Assembly: GCF_038449125.1 (NCBI RefSeq) | Contig: NZ_CP151800.1 | Coordinates: 158,406-222,405 of the forward strand | Direction of reading: 5' to 3' | Source of the DNA: Kosakonia sp. BYX6 | Lineage (GTDB): Bacteria; Pseudomonadota; Gammaproteobacteria; Enterobacterales; Enterobacteriaceae | Length of the DNA: 64,000 nucleotides | In this document: piece after piece, positions 36,815 through 44,145 of the stretch | Position numbering within the stretch: the first letter of the stretch is position 1 | How the letters are laid out: every line of letters starts with the position of its first letter | Notes under the pieces: model-generated | Told to the model about the DNA's origin: nothing | What the model saw: the letters and a program-made list of their open reading frames with translations, nothing else | The model's database searches: none | Made by a program: the position numbers and the translations under genes

Positions 36815-38731
36815 TTACTTGTTCAGCAGTTCCAGCACTTCTTCAACGCTGGTGGTCTGCGTCAGACGCTGAATTACTGTCTCATCATCCAGGGCGTTGG
36901 TCAGGCTGGTAATCACCTGAATGTGCTCATTGTTGCGCGCGGCGATGCCGATCACCAGACGGGCGATGTCATCTTCCCCTTCGCCGAAGCGTACACCTTG
37001 TGGGTACTGGCAGAACACGACGCCGGTTTTCAGCACGCGATCTTTCGCTTCAACGGTGCCGTGCGGTACCGCGATAGACTCACCCAGATAGGTCGGGGTC
37101 AGTTTTTCACGTTCCAGCATGGCGTCAACATATTCCGGCTGAACGTAGCCGCCTTTCACCAGTTGCTCACCGGCAAAACGGATAGCTTCTTCTTTGTGGC
37201 TCGCGCTGCAACCCAGGAAGATGTTCTCTGCGCCCAGTTTGAACAGGTGGCTGTTAGACGTATCGATGCTGTCTTGCAGGCTGCTGTTAACTTTCGCGGT
37301 GGTGTTGTCCGTGTGGCGCTGTGCGGCAACCAGACGCTCAGTCAGGCCAGTATACAGGCCGCTGTCCAGGAAGTTGGTCAGCGAAATATGCTGGGCTTGT
37401 GGCGCCTGGCGCATCGCGCGCTCGGTCAGATCGCGGTGCGTAATCACCAGGTCAACGTCAGACGGAAGGCTGTTGATGGCGCTGTTGGTCACAGAGATGT
37501 TGGTCAAACCCGCATCCTGCACTTTTTTGCGCAGTACGCCTGCACCCATGGCGCTGGAACCCATACCGGCATCACATGCCACGATGATTTTACGCACATG
37601 GCTCAGATCGCCCGTCACGTCGCCCGTTGCCTGCGCCGCCGCGCCTTTAGATTGGGCTTTCATGTCTTTCATACGACGGGTCGCTGCTTCGATATCTTCT
37701 TCTTCTTCGTCTTTCACTTTGCTGGTTTTCAGCAGGATAGCGGCGATCACGAAGGAGACAATCAGCGCTGCGAAGATCGCCGCGAGGTTAGCGAAGTAGG
37801 TACCTTTTGGCGTCATTGCCAGCACCGCCAGGATAGAACCCGGAGAAGCCGGAGACACCAGGCCGCCGTTCAGCACGCTCAGGGTGAACACGCCGGTCAT
37901 ACCACCGAGGATAACGGCGAGCAGCAGACGCGGGTTCATCAGCACGTACGGGAAGTAAATTTCGTGGATCCCCCCCAGGAAGTGGATGATTGCCGCGCCG
38001 CCAGCAGACTGTTTAGCACTGCCGCGACCAAAGAACATGTACGCCAGCAGAACGCCCATACCCGGACCCGGGTTCGCTTCAATCAGGAAGAAGATGGACT
38101 TGCCGAGGTCATGAGACTGCTGAATACCCAGCGGCGAGAAGATACCGTGGTTGATGGCGTTGTTGAGGAACAGGATTTTCGCCGGTTCAACAAAGATAGA
38201 CGCCAGCGGCAGCATGTCATGGACAACCATGAAGTTAACGCCAGCAGCCAGTACTTTAGACAGCACTTCAACCGCCGGGCCAATGCCGAGGAAAGCCAGA
38301 ATGGCGAGGATCATACCGATGATGCCAGCGGAGAAGTTGTTCACCAGCATTTCGAAACCGGATTTGATCTTACCGTCTACGGACGCGTCAAATTTCTTGA
38401 TGCAGTAGCCGCCCAGCGGGCCTGCGATCATTGCGCCGAGGAACATCGGCATATCCGCACCGACGATAACACCCATTGTGGTGATCGCGCCGACGACACC
38501 GCCGCGATCGCCGCCAACCAGACGACCACCGGTAAAACCGATGAGCAGCGGCAGTAGATAAGTAATCATTGGACCAACGAGTTTCGCCAGCGTCTCGTTT
38601 GGTAACCACCCTGTAGGAATAAACAATGCGGTGATGATCCCCCACGCGATAAACGCGCCGATGTTGGGCATCACCATATTGCTGAGAAAACGACCAAAGC
38701 TTTGCACTCTGATCTTGATATCGGATGACAT
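36815..38731 (-). CDS. mtlA: PTS mannitol transporter subunit IICBA
   Basis: Phosphorylating mannitol transporter. The N-terminal membrane EIIC domain spans about residues 1-335 (with GGIHEIYFPYVLMNP), EIIB has its phosphocysteine in VACDAGMGSSAMG near residue 385, and EIIA has its phospho-His in GESIAVPHGT near residue 555. It has 638 residues, one more than E. coli, with a linker of Lys/Glu/Ala between C and B. It is first in mtlA-mtlD-mtlR and strongly controlled by CRP (sites upstream). Confidence 0.97.
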   Translation of the reverse strand: MSSDIKIRVQSFGRFLSNMVMPNIGAFIAWGIITALFIPTGWLPNETLAKLVGPMITYLLPLLIGFTGGRLVGGDRGGVVGAITTMGVIVGADMPMFLGAMIAGPLGGYCIKKFDASVDGKIKSGFEMLVNNFSAGIIGMILAILAFLGIGPAVEVLSKVLAAGVNFMVVHDMLPLASIFVEPAKILFLNNAINHGIFSPLGIQQSHDLGKSIFFLIEANPGPGMGVLLAYMFFGRGSAKQSAGGAAIIHFLGGIHEIYFPYVLMNPRLLLAVILGGMTGVFTLSVLNGGLVSPASPGSILAVLAMTPKGTYFANLAAIFAALIVSFVIAAILLKTSKVKDEEEEDIEAATRRMKDMKAQSKGAAAQATGDVTGDLSHVRKIIVACDAGMGSSAMGAGVLRKKVQDAGLTNISVTNSAINSLPSDVDLVITHRDLTERAMRQAPQAQHISLTNFLDSGLYTGLTERLVAAQRHTDNTTAKVNSSLQDSIDTSNSHLFKLGAENIFLGCSASHKEEAIRFAGEQLVKGGYVQPEYVDAMLEREKLTPTYLGESIAVPHGTVEAKDRVLKTGVVFCQYPQGVRFGEGEDDIARLVIGIAARNNEHIQVITSLTNALDDETVIQRLTQTTSVEEVLELLNK

Positions 38732-38877
38732 AAAACACCCCTTCTTATGTTTGCTATCGCACAGGCCGGAAGCCCGAGGTTTGTTGTTAACGAGGCGGCA
38801 GAGGTAGCCGGACCTGGGTTATCTGTGACGCGAAATCTCGCACCGAATCACTCACCTGTCCAGATGGCGCTCATTAA

Positions 38878-38893
38878 TGTGATGTTTATCACA
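38878..38893 (-). promoter_or_regulatory. CRP site 1 of mtlA
   Basis: TGTGATGTTTATCACA is a perfect TGTGA-N6-TCACA palindrome about 150 bases ahead of mtlA. It is the one nearest the gene of a series of four good sites. Confidence 0.85.
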
Positions 38894-38921
38894 CTAAGGC
38901 AGGGGGTAACCTGTCACTTAG

Positions 38922-38937
38922 CGTGATATTGATCACA
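38922..38937 (-). promoter_or_regulatory. CRP site 2 of mtlA
   Basis: CGTGATATTGATCACA matches TGTGA-N6-TCACA at 9 of 10 positions and is 44 bases from site 1, roughly four helical turns. Confidence 0.75.
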
Positions 38938-38994
38938 AAAGTTCGGTGTAAAAAAAGTACAAAGAACAAAATCTAAGCGTTACAGGCCTGTAAG

Positions 38995-39010
38995 TGTGAT
39001 GTTATTCACA
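38995..39010 (-). promoter_or_regulatory. CRP site 3 of mtlA
   Basis: TGTGATGTTATTCACA is a perfect TGTGA-N6-TCACA palindrome, 73 bases from site 2 (about seven turns). Confidence 0.85.
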
Positions 39011-39038
39011 TTTAAGGCCTGGTACTTTGTTATTTATT

Positions 39039-39054
39039 TGTGATCTAAGTCACA
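39039..39054 (-). promoter_or_regulatory. CRP site 4 of mtlA
   Basis: TGTGATCTAAGTCACA is a perfect TGTGA-N6-TCACA palindrome, 44 bases from site 3. A weaker fifth candidate, TGTGATCAACAGCAAA, lies at 39081-39096. Five CRP sites are described for E. coli mtlA, so the array is conserved. Beyond it, up to 39408, is AT-rich DNA without a convincing gene. Confidence 0.85.
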
Positions 39055-39408
39055 AGAAATTTTTTCGAGAAAAATCCGAATGTGATCAACAGCAAATTGT
39101 GCATTTAAGCACCAGCCAACCTGTAACCCTCTTTCACCCTTTGCAAAGGTAATAATCCTGGGTCGCGGAGTTTGCATTCTGATGAATCGACCTGGAAAAA
39201 ATGCGCAGCCCTTATCGCTTCAGCGTTTATACGCGTTCGCCTCTTTTTCTCGCTTTTTCAATTTATTAAGCAGGCATAATAATTGGTTGTTAGCATATAT
39301 ATAATTAAGATAAGTGAATCATCTTTACAGTAAATATATTAACGCTGAGTACTTATCTGCCGTGAATAATTAAAAGGTTATTTAAAATTAAGGTCGGAAA
39401 AATAATAA

Positions 39409-39437
39409 TTGAATCCGGTTAATACAATTGGTAATAA
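39409..39437 (+). promoter_or_regulatory. Sigma-70 promoter of the double-glycine peptide gene
   Basis: TTGAAT (39409-39414) and TAATAA (39432-39437) are 17 bases apart, 46 bases before the ATG, in very AT-rich DNA. It is the best hexamer pair near the gene and gives a leader of about 40 bases with a strong AAGGAG. Confidence 0.6.
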
Positions 39438-39482
39438 TTAAAAACGTTCAGTAGTAATCATCTTTAAAAAGGAGCTTTAAAA

Positions 39483-39800
39483 ATGCGTGAATTAAATAAT
39501 GTTGAACTGGAAGAAGTAAACGGCGGTATCGGTCTGGGTTTTGGCCAGGAAGCGGGTGGTCTGCTGGGTGGGGGTATCGGTGCCGTTGTTGACTGGAGCA
39601 ATGGTTCTAACACCGGCGCAGCTAACGTAGGTGCTCTGCTGGGTGGCGGCATCGGCGCGGTTGTTGATGCGAGCGTTGCAGGTCTGACTTCTGTTGCTGA
39701 ATGGGGTGTCGGCCTGGGCGGTTATATCGCCAGCACTGTGGGTAAAGGCATCTCCGATATTGGCAACGCCATTATCGGCATGTTCAACCCGTTTAAATAA
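39483..39800 (+). CDS. Double-glycine leader peptide, class II microcin/bacteriocin-like
   Basis: A 105-residue peptide with a 15-residue leader MRELNNVELEEVNGG, the consensus double-glycine leader (conserved Leu and Val, then GG) cleaved by C39 peptidase exporters; colicin V has the same kind. The predicted mature part (residues 16-105) is Gly/Ala/Val-rich, Cys-free, with many GxxxG-type patterns and an internal duplication, LLGGGIGAVVD at 27-37 and again at 52-62. It ends GMFNPFK. AAGGAG stands 8 bases before the ATG. It is convergent with a CvaB-like exporter. Class II microcins act on related bacteria, but no target or activity can be inferred, and no immunity gene is recognised. A signalling role is the alternative. 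Confidence 0.85.
   Translation: MRELNNVELEEVNGGIGLGFGQEAGGLLGGGIGAVVDWSNGSNTGAANVGALLGGGIGAVVDASVAGLTSVAEWGVGLGGYIASTVGKGISDIGNAIIGMFNPFK
39561..39668 (+). repeat. Internal duplication in the double-glycine peptide gene
   Basis: Codons 27-37 (39561-39593) and 52-62 (39636-39668) both encode LLGGGIGAVVD; the next residues are WS and AS. The copies start 75 bases apart and differ only at third positions, so the protein is kept identical while the DNA has drifted. This points to an old duplication under selection. Confidence 0.85.
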
Positions 39801-39828
39801 TCGTATTGCAATACCCTCTGAATAATTT

Positions 39829-39864
39829 AAAAGCACCGCTTGTTTAAGCGGTGCTTTTATTTTT
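39829..39864. terminator. Strong terminator between the peptide gene and the exporter gene
   Basis: AAAAGCACCGCTT GTTT AAGCGGTGCTTTT is a perfect 13-bp stem with a 4-base loop followed by ATTTTT. It ends the peptide transcript 29 bases after its stop. On the minus strand the stem's own T's and an AT-rich tail could also end the exporter operon, whose stop is immediately adjacent. Confidence 0.9.
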
Positions 39865-41963
39865 CACATCGTAATGATTCTATCGGCGAGCAGAATTGTG
39901 GATTCGCGATGAGCAATAATAACGCGGGTAATGTTCAATTGTTTTATTGCCTGATTCACAAATCCTTCGCTGATACTGTCCAGCGCGCTGGTCGCTTCAT
40001 CCATAAAAAGAATTTTCGGTTTGCGGTATAGCGCGCGCGCAATAAATAAACGCTGCTTTTGCCCGCCGGAAAGCCCTTCACCCAGTTCACCGATCAGCGT
40101 TTCATAGCCCATTGGCATTTTCATAATAACATCATGGATATAGCTCGCTTTCGCGCACTCTACCATCCAGTTGTCATCCATCTGTTCCGTAAAACCGCAA
40201 ATATTCTCGCGAAGGGAACCCGAAAAGAGCCGGTCGTCCTGCATCACGCTGGCAATCATCTTGTGATAATTGTTCACCCCGAGTTGCTGGATATCGGTAC
40301 CGTTTGCCAGCACTACGCCCGCATCCGGCATTGATAACCCGCAGAGCACTTTCATCAATGTCGTTTTTCCCGCACCTGACACGCCCGTTATCGCCACGCT
40401 CTCGCCGGGTTGAATGCTAATGCTGAGATTGCTAAACACGGGTGCCGACTGGCTATCATAGCGGTAGCTAAGATTTCGCGTTTCCAGTGCGAGCGCCCCG
40501 GTTTCCGCTTCTATTGCCATGTCCGGCTTTTTGGCTTCCTGCTCATGCAGCGCAATATCGGCGATACGTTCGTTGTGCAGCGTCATCATCCGTAGCTGGA
40601 GCAAAAAGTTGGTCAGGGAAGAGACGCGATCGGAGAATTGCCCGCGAAATACGCCGAACGCCACAAACATCCCGATGGTCATCTCGTTACCGATCACCAG
40701 GCTGGAACCTAGCCACAAAATCACTATCTGATCGCAGGCGGTAATAAAGGTATTGATACCCCCGAAAAGCATATCCATTTTGCTAACCCGGATGCCGGTA
40801 TTGATGGCGTCAATTTTCAGGTTCAACCAATGTGCGCCCCGGCGTTCGCCCATGCCCTGCATCTTGACCGTCGCGATGCCGTACAACGTTTCCATAAAGT
40901 AGGAGGTTGCGCGGGCGTTTCTGATCAGCCGCTCTTCCGAAAGTTGCCGATAATAGCGGTAGGTCAAAATGCGTATCAGCACATAAATAGAGGTAAAGCC
41001 GAGCACCACCCAGGTTAGCCAACTGCCATAAAGCACCAGCATAATCAGCACGCCAATGACCATCACGCCATCGATAATCGCGCCGACTACGCTTGTGGTG
41101 AATGTGGTGCGTAGGGAATCCAGAGAACCAAAACGGGAATGGACATCGCCCATTTTGCGCCGTTCAAAATAGCCCAACGGCAACTGCAACAAATGCCGAA
41201 ACAGCCCTGATTGCCACTGCACATCGATAAGCGTTCCCATCACCAACGATGTCCAGGCGCGCAGCATGCTGATGGCCGAACGCAGCAAGATAAAGAACAT
41301 CAACCCGGCGCAAATAAGTGTTAACAGGCCACGATCGCCAGCGGGAAGGGCGTGGTCCATCACCAATTGCGTGCCGATCGGCATCACCAGGTTGATGCTT
41401 TCTATCACCACAGACAGGCAGAATACCTTCATCAGCGTGCTCTTCAGACCATGCACGCTGCCAATCAGTGTTCTCAGGCTCAGCATGTTTTTTACCGTTT
41501 CCGCTTTGAATTCGCTGCCTGGCCAGGCCTCAAGTGCGACGCCGGTAAAGTTTTGCGACATTTCCGCCAGCCCGACGGTTCGGCGCCCGCGCGCCGGGTC
41601 GTGAATCACAAAGCGGTTGCCGCGCACGCTCACCAGCACCACAAAATGGTTAAAGTCCCAATGCAAAATGCACGGCGTTTTGAGCGCGCTGATCTCATGC
41701 AAATCAAGGGTTAACGCCCGCGTCGCCATGCCCAGTTGTGCGGTGATGCCCGTCAAACCGCCCAGCGTAGATCCCCGCGCGGAGAGATTGAATTGTTGGC
41801 GAAGTGAAATCAGGTCGATGTTTTTGCCATAAAAGCCGCAAACCATGGCGACACAGGCCAACCCGCACTCTGAGGATTCTGTTTGATGCACGACAGGCAC
41901 GCGCTGGCGTAAGCCTAAATCCAGTTTGTTGATGATTGCGCGAAAGGTCATTTTGTTAAGCAT
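39864..41963 (-). CDS. Peptidase-containing ABC exporter, CvaB/C39 type
   Basis: Inner-membrane exporter that cuts double-glycine leaders and pumps the peptide out. The N-terminal C39 peptidase shows the triad Cys33 ([10 protein letters not shown]), His106 (WDFNHFVVL) and Asp122 (VIHDPARG). About five or six membrane helices follow at residues 175-450. The ATPase has Walker [10 protein letters not shown] (527-535), signature LSGGQKQR (about 631) and Walker [13 protein letters not shown] (about 650) with an H-loop His in IIAHRES. All key residues are intact in 699 residues. It overlaps the upstream membrane fusion gene by 8 bases. Its obvious substrate is the convergent double-glycine peptide. 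TolC would complete the channel. Confidence 0.93.
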
Positions 41964-43230
41964 TGATCGGCCCCGCTACGCTGTGCTTCATGTCGTAAAA
42001 CGGTGAAAGCATCCATTGGTATATTTTCCTTTTTTCCAGAAACAGGGTGATCTGCGCTTTCATGCCGTTTTGCAGTGCCATGTTTTTGCCGGCATAGCCG
42101 ATCGCTTGCTTATCGAGTTTTACCTGCACTTTGTAATAGGGAACGGATGTGCCCGCAGTGCTTTGCGGCGCACCGTGGTAGCTCGCCATTTCTTGATGGG
42201 AGGCTGGTGTCTTTGCTAATGCGGTAATGGTGGCGGAAAATTGTCCGAACTTCTCAGCGGGAAACGCGTCGTAGCGGACATTGACCCTATCGCCCTGGGA
42301 AATATAAGGCCGCGCGTCATTGGGTACCCAAACGACCAGATAATGCTCGACAATTTTTTCAGGAATTATCTGTGCCAGGCTGTCGCCAGGGTTGACCATC
42401 TGTCCGACCGTTACGCTTAATGAATCAATTTTTCCGGCGGATAACGCACGAACAATTACCTCGCCATTGGCATCGGTATTCACTAATTCTTTGCGCAATT
42501 CATAACGCTGTAATTCGAGTTGATTAATCCGATTATCAAACTCTGTCGCCTGTGTGCGCATTTGGCTGGTGAGCGTATCGACCTGCAAGGCATTCTGTTC
42601 ATTCTGCCCGCTTAGGTTAAGAAAATTATTGTGTTGTTGATAATAAAGGGCAATTTGGTTGGTCAGTTGATCTTTATTAATTAACCCGCGCTCATGATAT
42701 TGGCGATAATTATCCATATTCTCTTTCATGATTTTGATGCCATTTTCCGCGCGTTTAATAATCGCCGAGGAGCGCGCTAATGCATCGGCATAATGACTTT
42801 TCTGCTGTTCCAGCGAGGCAAGCGTGTTTTTTTTATTCTCTTGCAAAAGCGCAATCATTTCGTCCAGCCGCGTTAACTGGCTGGAAATCTCATTTCGTTG
42901 ATTTTCATTAACAATCCCGTTGCGAGTACTTTTGCTGACGTCAACCAAATAAACCGGATCGCCTTTTTTGATGGCTTGCCCGCCGGAGACAAATTGCTTA
43001 ACGATAAACCCCTGAACCCCGGATGAAATATTGATAGCTCTCGGCAAGGTGGTAATTTCGCCAGTGACATTCACGCGCCGAGTATATGTGCCTGTGATAA
43101 CAAATAATAAGAACGCCACAATAAAAAGCGTACAGCCGGATATTGTCAGCCAGACTGGAATGCCGGGCAGTAAAATAGCGCGTCCGCGCCATCGCATTTT
43201 TCTATTTTCTAACGCTTCTCGTCGAAACAT
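41956..43230 (-). CDS. HlyD-family membrane fusion protein, CvaA type
   Basis: Periplasmic adaptor joining the ABC exporter to an outer-membrane factor, probably TolC. A single N-terminal membrane helix lies at about residues 25-50 ([21 protein letters not shown]). It is followed by a lipoyl/biotinyl half ([20 protein letters not shown]), a long coiled-coil hairpin (about 105-260) and the second lipoyl half with a beta-barrel region. It has 424 residues, near CvaA. AAGGAAAGG lies ahead of the ATG. It diverges from yibF with a 306-base gap that contains a small ATCCTG/CAGGAT hairpin and no further gene. Confidence 0.92.
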
Positions 43231-43536
43231 CTCAACCTTTCCTTAGTTAAAAAACGGCTCGCGATCCTGAGATAACAGGATGGCGTTTCCCTAATTTATG
43301 ACTGCTCTGAAATAGATCTGTTATTTGCGAAATGAATATTTAATGGCAATGCTTAGTCATTAATAAAATACGCTTTTTACGGCGGCGTAATAATACTGAA
43401 TCACTTTGTGTTTCTGAAAGGGTTTTTAATTCTTCTATAACTATTCCGAGATATATGCAGCGGCGGTGGCTGTACAAAGATGGCGCTTAACGTACACTCT
43501 TTTTAATCCCTGCGATAAAACCTAAAGGACAAGGCT

Positions 43537-44145
43537 ATGAAACTGATTGGCAGCTACACCAGCCCTTTTGTACGCAAAATCTCCGTGATACTGCTGGAAA
43601 AAGGTATCACCTTCGAATTTATTAATGAGCAGCCCTACAACGCCGTCAATGGCGTGGGGCAATACAACCCGCTTGGCAAAGTGCCCGCGCTGGTAACCGA
43701 CGAAGGCGAAGTCTGGTACGACTCGCCAATTATCGCGGAATACATTGATTTGCTGGGTATTGCGCCCGCCATGTTGCCCACCGAGCCGAAAGCGGCGCTT
43801 AAAATCCGCCAACTGGAAGCATTGGCTGACGGCATCATGGACGCCTCGTTGGTCTCCGTGCGCGAGCTGGCGCGCCCGGTTGAGCAACAATCGGAAACCG
43901 AACTGCTGCGCCAGCGCGAAAAAGTGGCGCGCGGGCTGGATGCGCTGGAAAGCTACCTGCAAGACGGCACGCTGCGCGTTGATGAACTGAACCTGGCGAC
44001 CATCGCCATTGCCTGCGCCATTAGTTATCTCAACTTCCGCCGTGTCTCGCCGGGCTGGTGCGTTGATCGCCCATTGTTGGTGAAGCTGGTGGAAAATCTG
44101 TTCCAGCGCGAGAGCTTCGCGCGCACTGAACCGCCAAAGGCTTGA
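43537..44145 (+). CDS. yibF: Glutathione S-transferase family protein YibF
   Basis: Cytosolic GST-fold protein: N-terminal thioredoxin-like domain ([19 protein letters not shown] with the Ser of the SPF motif; [25 protein letters not shown] with cis-Pro and the ES/DS glutathione motif) and an all-helical C-terminal domain. E. coli YibF binds glutathione but its substrate is unknown. It has 202 residues. It precedes selA-selB, as in E. coli. Confidence 0.95.

What the first reader, a model, noticed from the sequence alone, without database searches (positions are those of the whole stretch)
39483..43230. Microcin-like double-glycine peptide with a dedicated CvaB/CvaA-type exporter, inserted between mtlA and yibF
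The peptide has a textbook double-glycine leader. The neighbouring exporter has an intact C39 peptidase triad (Cys33, His106, Asp122) and an intact ATPase, and a CvaA-like adaptor completes it. The E. coli K-12 counterpart of this spot carries other genes (rhsA, yibH/yibI). The three genes thus look like a complete, self-contained peptide export unit. The peptide itself (Gly-rich, no Cys, GxxxG repeats) matches no named microcin that I recognise.
Basis: partly seen in the sequence, partly recalled or inferred. Interest (0 to 1): 0.88.

Follow-up and report, generated by a model that had tools for sequence, protein, structure and literature searches.

The report
Microcin-V-like peptide cassette lacking immunity gene
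A Kosakonia chromosome carries a small inserted gene set that makes a glycine-rich peptide and very probably exports it through a microcin-V-type pump; it belongs to a widespread, largely untested family of suspected bacterial weapons, and unlike the classic ones it has no recognisable self-protection gene beside it.

Summary
A 105-aa peptide with a 15-aa double-glycine leader (39483-39800, +) converges on a C39-peptidase ABC exporter (39864-41963, -) and an HlyD-type adaptor (41956-43230, -). The exporter is 73-75% identical to E. coli CvaB and MchF and groups with them, weakly supported. The genes form an insert of about 4.3 kb between mtlA and yibF in 2 of 15 Kosakonia genomes; the spot is empty in the other 13. 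The peptide is no isolate: relatives with the same leader and two glycine-zipper modules occur across Enterobacteriaceae, and 31 of 33 genomes with a short-ORF match also have a C39 domain, against 109 of 359 others. The cassette meets four published criteria for class II microcin candidates and most for Cdz-like proteins. What my tests do not find is an immunity gene: microcin V, with the same layout, keeps cvi directly upstream of the peptide gene; here, and in 16 of 20 loci tested, no such ORF was seen. Export is very likely; killing is inferred and untested. 'Complete, self-contained' is too strong. New member of a known kind, with one testable oddity.

The parts
39190..43468 (.). approximate extent of the insert between the mtlA promoter region and yibF
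   Evidence: BLAST homology to empty sites of 13 other Kosakonia ends between 39063 and 39189 (in most near 39137) and, in two of them, resumes at 43469 or 43490
39483..39800 (+). 105-aa precursor peptide gene
   Evidence: dN/dS 0.14 against G400
39483..39527 (+). 15-aa double-glycine leader, hydrophobic at -4, -7 and -12
   Evidence: criteria in PMC11494933 (passages)
39528..39797 (+). predicted 90-aa mature peptide
   Evidence: cleavage inferred
39555..39599 (+). glycine-zipper module 1
   Evidence: 45-nt direct repeat, 82% identical to module 2, spacing 75 nt; conserved in A1
39630..39674 (+). glycine-zipper module 2
39828..39859 (.). terminator-like hairpin between the convergent genes (14-bp stem, 4-nt loop)
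39864..41963 (-). 699-aa peptidase-containing ABC exporter, CvaB/MchF type
41514..41900 (-). C39 peptidase domain of the exporter (residues 22-150)
   Evidence: Pfam PF03412 E 2.4e-37; triad intact
41956..43230 (-). 424-aa HlyD/CvaA-type periplasmic adaptor

Best explanation
A microcin-V-type secretion cassette, probably acquired at the mtlA-yibF spot by an ancestor of two Kosakonia species. The 105-aa precursor is recognised by its leader, cut after Gly14-Gly15 by the exporter's C39 domain, and leaves the cell through exporter, adaptor and the housekeeping TolC as a 90-aa acidic, cysteine-free peptide. Its two LGGGIGAVVD modules are predicted to form small-residue helices that oligomerise and insert into, or aggregate at, membranes of competing cells, as proposed for Cdz proteins and class II bacteriocins. 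Shown here: genes, motifs, exporter kinship, constraint between two species, distribution, and no immunity gene detectable by my tests. Inferred: single acquisition, cleavage, export, membrane action, and antagonism as the purpose.
For: Leader meets published class II microcin criteria: 15 aa, GG end, hydrophobic -4/-7/-12, 25.7% Gly, next to a PCAT gene. Exporter is 75% and 73% identical to MchF and CvaB and falls in a 13-row group with them (support 89/76, an open fork). Gene layout equals the microcin V locus: adaptor-exporter convergent with the peptide. dN/dS 0.14, 0.074 and 0.062 for peptide, exporter and adaptor against G400 (two sequences only). Present in 2 and absent from 13 of 15 Kosakonia at this spot. 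Peptide family co-occurs with C39 domains: 31 of 33 against 109 of 359 (Fisher p 3e-13). TolC present. Most features that the Cdz paper lists for Cdz-like proteins are met as I read them.
Against: No immunity gene by a test that does find cvi and mchI. Composition shuffles do not make the GxxxG count remarkable. The window peptide hits no bacteriocin model above cut-off (TIGR03949 19.5 of 21.5 bits; MccV E 0.23). 27 of 40 peptide regions of relatives show no exporter over 500 bits in the stretch. The structure prediction is uninformative (mean pLDDT 49). No activity data were seen for this peptide; in published screens only part of the candidates inhibit (12 of 23 in PMC13174018, abstract; 12 of 40 in PMC13101503, passages).
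Confidence: 0.58

Rival explanations
1. Secreted but not a weapon: the glycine-zipper peptide aggregates on the producer's own surface or in the biofilm matrix (amyloid-like or surfactant-like), which is why no immunity gene is needed.
For: No immunity candidate at the window locus. Six different zipper peptides in one locus in three other Kosakonia without convincing immunity genes. 10 of 21 relatives resemble Pfam PSMbeta at E 0.1 or better, below its cut-off (best 23.9 of 25 bits). CdzC forms surface aggregates (PMC5380434, passages).
Against: PSMbeta likeness is sub-threshold and absent in the window peptide. Patchy presence and variable cargo fit antagonism better (inference). CdzC aggregates are linked to killing in the same paper.
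Confidence: 0.22
2. A conventional bacteriocin whose self-protection is by other means: the exporter itself, an unlinked immunity gene, or a receptor difference.
For: Immunity proteins were harder to identify than the toxins for Cdz-like systems (PMC5380434, passages) and are difficult to recognise for microcins (PMC9746304, discussion part 1).
Against: Nothing seen points to a specific unlinked gene; none was searched for, since no query exists.
Confidence: 0.15
3. Signalling or autolysis peptide, as for the gonococcal Nap peptides, which have microcin features but do not kill competitors.
For: Precedent only (PMC11798529, passages).
Against: That island has its own regulator and immunity-like gene; no such gene is seen in the insert, which holds three ORFs of 90 aa or more besides antisense frames.
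Confidence: 0.05

Closest known systems
Microcin V (cvaA-cvaB-cvaC-cvi) and the microcin H47 exporter MchF
   Same: Exporter 73% (CvaB) and 75% (MchF) identical, adaptors 69%; 15-aa leader of the same type; microcin V has the same convergent gene layout.
   Different: Peptide core unrelated (alignment to CvaC covers residues 1-29 only, E 0.14), no Cys against 2 in CvaC, core 28% Gly against 17%; no cvi-like gene found.
Cdz-like glycine-zipper systems (CdzC/CdzD of Caulobacter)
   Same: 60-151 aa, leader ending G[G/A/S], glycine zippers bounded by charged residues, type I exporter within 10 kb (criteria in PMC5380434, passages).
   Different: No CdzI-like immunity gene found; sequence kinship to CdzC/D not tested; exporter is of the microcin type.
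Zipper-peptide arrays of other Kosakonia (G393, G397, G398; the last matches K. sacchari SP1)
   Same: Exporter 76%, adaptor 66-67% identical; same leader and zipper modules.
   Different: Six peptide genes, not next to mtlA, downstream of the exporter and in the same direction. PMC9746304 already reports microcin hits in the majority of K. radicincitans and K. oryzae assemblies (section 4 part 2).
Class IIb bacteriocins of the lactobin A/cerein 7B family (TIGR03949)
   Same: Leader and first zipper match weakly (E 6e-4; 5 of 21 relatives match at E 0.1, best 1.5e-6).
   Different: Window peptide is below the curated cut-off; a Gram-positive family as far as I recall.

Membership tests
class II microcin (bioinformatic criteria of PMC11494933) | 15-18 aa leader ending GG or GA | tested here: met
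   15 aa, GG
class II microcin (bioinformatic criteria of PMC11494933) | hydrophobic residues at -4, -7, -12 | tested here: met
   V, L, L
class II microcin (bioinformatic criteria of PMC11494933) | glycine content 12-26% | tested here: met
   25.7% of the precursor, 27.8% of the mature part
class II microcin (bioinformatic criteria of PMC11494933) | encoded near a PCAT gene | tested here: met
   63 bp apart, C39 triad intact
class II microcin (as verified examples) | adjacent immunity gene (usually a small membrane protein) | tested here: not met
   no same-strand ORF of 45 aa or more with a transmembrane-like stretch within 500 nt; the test finds mchI and cvi; it would miss soluble, opposite-strand or distant ones
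class II microcin (as verified examples) | antibacterial activity | not testable with these tools
   needs secretion and inhibition assays
class IIb microcin | C-terminal Gly/Ser-rich motif for siderophore attachment, with modification genes (PMC13101503, passages) | tested here: not met
   C-terminus NAIIGMFNPFK; no modification gene in the insert
Cdz-like protein (criteria of PMC5380434) | 60-151 aa with leader ending G[G/A/S] | tested here: met
   105 aa, GG
Cdz-like protein (criteria of PMC5380434) | one or two glycine zippers flanked, not interrupted, by Pro or charged residues | tested here: met
   GGLLGGGIG after E and before D; GALLGGGIG before D; judged by eye, and GxxxGxxxG is not above shuffles (p 0.09); an earlier GxxxGxxxG match (residues 21-29) contains E
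Cdz-like protein (criteria of PMC5380434) | short charged or polar C-terminus | tested here: inconclusive
   ends FNPFK, after an extension that most relatives in A1 lack
Cdz-like protein (criteria of PMC5380434) | type I secretion genes within 10 kb | tested here: met
   adjacent
Cdz-like protein (criteria of PMC5380434) | HMM similarity to CdzC/CdzD | not tested
   CdzC/D sequences were not in hand
Cdz-like protein (criteria of PMC5380434) | surface-bound, contact-dependent killing | not testable with these tools
   needs fractionation and co-culture
TIGR03949 lactobin A/cerein 7B | score over the curated cut-off | tested here: not met
   19.5 of 21.5 bits

The most novel reading that the evidence does not exclude
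The zipper peptides form a distinct class of microcin-exporter cargo that needs no dedicated immunity protein: the exporter clears them from the producer's membrane, or they act as self-assembling surface material, and loci can therefore gain extra peptide genes (up to six side by side) without gaining immunity genes.
Probability: 0.22. Interest if true: 0.65.

Novelty: new member of a known kind. Interest (0 to 1): 0.42.

Why it matters
It links a named secretion machine (microcin V type) to a broad, largely uncharacterised peptide family in Enterobacteriaceae. The missing immunity gene is a sharp, cheap question: delete the exporter alone or the cassette and see whether the producer is harmed. 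If the peptides kill, self-protection must work in an unfamiliar way; if they do not, many genome-mined 'microcin candidates' of this type are mislabelled.

Tried and rejected
Immunity gene: ORFs of 25 aa or more in 38701-43600 that overlap the known genes by less than 40% were listed. The only one with a hydrophobic stretch of 1.7 or more is 35 aa, TTG start, no Shine-Dalgarno, in the mtlA-side flank. A 45-aa ORF at 43340-43477 has frame-breaking gaps against G400. In 45 zipper peptides of 20 loci that I picked, 5 peptides (4 loci: L062, L067, L070, L122) had a same-strand candidate within 500 nt. By eye: the L122 one is itself a zipper peptide, the L062 one looks like the start of the next gene, the others look like out-of-frame ORFs. 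Against a clean absence: a wider scan (either strand, 30-150 aa, 700-nt margins) shows at least one hydrophobic ORF in 19 of 31 loci, mostly under 60 aa and without a Shine-Dalgarno, including the window's 35-aa one. Both tests miss soluble or distant immunity proteins. Of the four positive controls two (L111, L113) were chosen because I had already seen the neighbour gene; MccH47 and MccV are the independent ones.

Mobile element: the repeat finder over 39100-43560 showed no repeat pair at the two insert ends, and no transposase-like ORF was noticed. Fold: AlphaFold2 mean pLDDT 49, pTM 0.24, so no fold search was run. Peptide in plasmids and genome contigs: no match, although genome search finds relatives, so these searches are too strict for it or leave records out. 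Solved structures: the exporter has relatives titled ABC-type bacteriocin transporter, HlyB, ComA and P-glycoproteins; the peptide profile has one match at E 0.5, taken as chance. Promoter scan: 12 found against 7.8 (sd 2.8) in shuffles. PSM-beta likeness as a family: below cut-off in the relatives looked at, rejected as membership.

Rows dropped before counting: 7 of the 40 peptide-positive genomes (G075, G094, G153, G207, G270, G281, G365), whose matches lie in ORFs of 222-634 aa; two of them (G153, G270) have a C39 domain. With them the count is 33 of 40 against 107 of 352. Two kept genomes (G098, G209) have matches that run over stop codons. The two kept genomes without C39 are G343 and G358. 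Alignment A1 holds 21 relatives that I picked from those seen, not all.
Full report
What is there. The peptide precursor is 105 aa; its leader MRELNNVELEEVNGG has hydrophobic residues at -4, -7 and -12. The predicted product is 90 aa, 8.4 kDa, pI 4.1, without cysteine, with 25 glycines. An AGGAG ends eight nucleotides before the ATG. A 45-nt direct repeat (82% identical, spacing 75 nt, i.e. 25 aa) encodes two copies of the module G(G/A)LLGGGIGAVVD. The exporter has an intact C39 triad and intact ATPase motifs; the solved relatives that also cover the C39 part best are titled ABC-type bacteriocin transporter. A 14-bp hairpin separates the convergent genes.

Which organism. The genome is a single contig of 4.79 Mb. 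One genome of the same genus, G398, has a contig of 311,756 bases with the same locus as FOAY01000005.1, 311,756 bases, titled Kosakonia sacchari SP1. The genus is therefore Kosakonia; the species of the window was not determined.

Insertion. mtlA was found in 15 of 15 Kosakonia genomes. In 13 of 15, yibF follows at 513-654 bp; in the window genome and G400 the cassette lies between them. BLAST homology to the empty sites ends between 39063 and 39189 and resumes, in two of the 13, at 43469 or 43490, so the insert is about 4.3 kb with approximate edges. No repeat pair marks its ends. GC is 0.33 around the left end, 0.42-0.46 over the adaptor's 5' half and the right end, and about 0.50-0.57 over most of the exporter, against 0.53-0.64 in mtlA and selA. 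Synonymous divergence from G400 is higher in the cassette (dS 0.70 peptide, 0.84 exporter, 1.03 adaptor) than in mtlA, yibF and selA (0.26, 0.53, 0.60); dN/dS is 0.14, 0.074 and 0.062 for peptide, exporter and adaptor. These are two-sequence estimates; they say that all three genes are maintained, and the higher dS leaves open separate acquisitions. A 63-residue exporter fragment (70% identical) in a third species, G072, lies on another contig and was not followed.

Exporter kinship. The exporter is 75.1% identical to MchF and 73.4% to CvaB of E. coli, the adaptor 69.0% and 69.3% to the neighbouring adaptors. In a tree of 56 exporters the window pair sits in a 13-row group with MchF, CvaB and the Kosakonia array exporters, but the fork is weak (89/76). 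At E 1e-150, 726 of 72,556 plasmid records hold a protein-level relative; 766 of 5,426 E. coli genomes hold a DNA-level match, 669 of them over 80% of the gene. Many of the rows listed are annotated mchF, cvaB or 'peptidase domain-containing ABC transporter'; a few bear other names or none. The microcin V locus has the same layout: adaptor and exporter in one direction, peptide converging, with cvi directly upstream of and overlapping cvaC.

The peptide family. 40 of 392 genomes of the family have a match at E 0.01 or better; 33 remain after dropping seven whose matches lie in long ORFs. Of these 33, 31 have a C39 domain (E 1e-10), against 109 of the 359 others (Fisher p 3e-13; the two searches drew 392 genomes each with the same handles as far as listed). 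Of 40 peptide regions fetched, 13 have an exporter of more than 500 bits within the stretch and 27 do not; some stretches end at contig ends, one has a partial exporter (L106), and in one a C39 match lies just outside (G321). In an alignment of 21 relatives the invariant columns are L4, G14, G19, G29, G33 and F101 and the consensus is MRELNxxExxEVSGAG, then DAGxALGxGIGxIVD, then AGxxLGxGIGxVVEAG, then GGLFG. The window and G400 peptides carry an extension before the C-terminus that most of the others lack. Three Kosakonia (G393, G397, G398) have six peptide genes beside a 76% identical exporter and ten profile matches per genome, including pairs elsewhere without an exporter in the stretch. 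The window genome and G400 have one profile match each, G396 none. Within the genus the single-peptide search rings in 6 of 15 genomes at E 0.1, one of which (G394) is a weak match in a 271-aa frame.

No immunity gene found. Between mtlA and yibF no ORF looks like an immunity protein, and none is conserved between the window and G400. With one criterion (same strand, 45 aa or more, hydrophobic stretch, within 500 nt) mchI and cvi are found, while 40 of 45 zipper peptides, and 16 of 20 loci (window included), have nothing; the five exceptions are weak or are themselves a peptide. A looser scan is less clean: 19 of 31 loci show some hydrophobic ORF of 30 aa or more. The 20 loci are not independent: three are near-identical Kosakonia arrays. 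Exporters of the same kind with other cargo can show such genes, e.g. Serratia plymuthica L111 and Enterobacter L113 (chosen after seeing them). Class II microcins are described as encoded adjacent to their immunity protein (PMC13101503, passages), so this is the one general feature of class II microcins that was tested and not met. The Cdz paper reports that immunity proteins were harder to identify near Cdz-like systems (PMC5380434, passages), so the gap has been noticed before in general terms.

Mechanism. I commit to a secreted, membrane-active glycine-zipper peptide used in competition. Leader recognition, cleavage and passage through exporter, adaptor and TolC (two TolC-family genes over the cut-off) follow from the motifs and from the kinship to CvaB/MchF; the action on membranes follows only from the zipper modules and from analogy with Cdz and class II bacteriocins. 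Subthreshold likeness of 10 of 21 relatives to Pfam PSMbeta (best 23.9 of 25 bits) also points to membrane-active or aggregating peptides, but the window peptide lacks it. The structure prediction failed.

Known or new. Listings of searches for Kosakonia with microcin or bacteriocin, glycine zipper with bacteriocin or microcin, class II microcin surveys and phenol-soluble modulin with double-glycine showed no title on this peptide; the library holds open-licence papers only. The survey PMC9746304 reports microcin hits in the majority of assemblies of K. radicincitans and K. oryzae (section 4 part 2), and PMC5380434 marks Enterobacteriaceae branches among its Cdz-like systems (passages). I read sections or passages of these, not supplementary tables, so this very peptide may be listed there. 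It is a new member of a known kind; the missing immunity gene and the multi-peptide arrays are what deserve a bench test.

Noticed in passing
window 38732-43536; L252-L260: The mtlA-yibF spot is variable across the family: in 30 genomes looked at (window and one more Kosakonia included) yibF is within about 1.5 kb of mtlA in 14 and not in 16; K-12 has rhsA to yibI there; nine of the 16 were read further and show, among other things, yibI-yibH, a sugar-uptake-like cluster, or what looks like a VgrG piece (by eye).
   Followed up: partly
L062, L066, L067: Arrays of six different glycine-zipper double-glycine peptides beside one exporter in three Kosakonia genomes.
   Followed up: partly
L065:7504-8410, L069:6947-7800: Zipper peptides without an exporter in the stretch, perhaps served by an exporter elsewhere in the genome.
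   Followed up: no
L068 (G396:C38): A different type of Gly/Ser-rich double-glycine peptides with a 38% identical exporter and small membrane-protein-like ORFs beside them, one of 78 aa.
   Followed up: no
L131:5035-5575: Enterobacter asburiae: two extremely Gly/Asn-rich double-glycine peptides next to a 69% identical exporter.
   Followed up: no
L218 (G072:C24 near the contig end): A 63-residue fragment 70% identical to the exporter, perhaps a remnant or a contig-end artefact.
   Followed up: no
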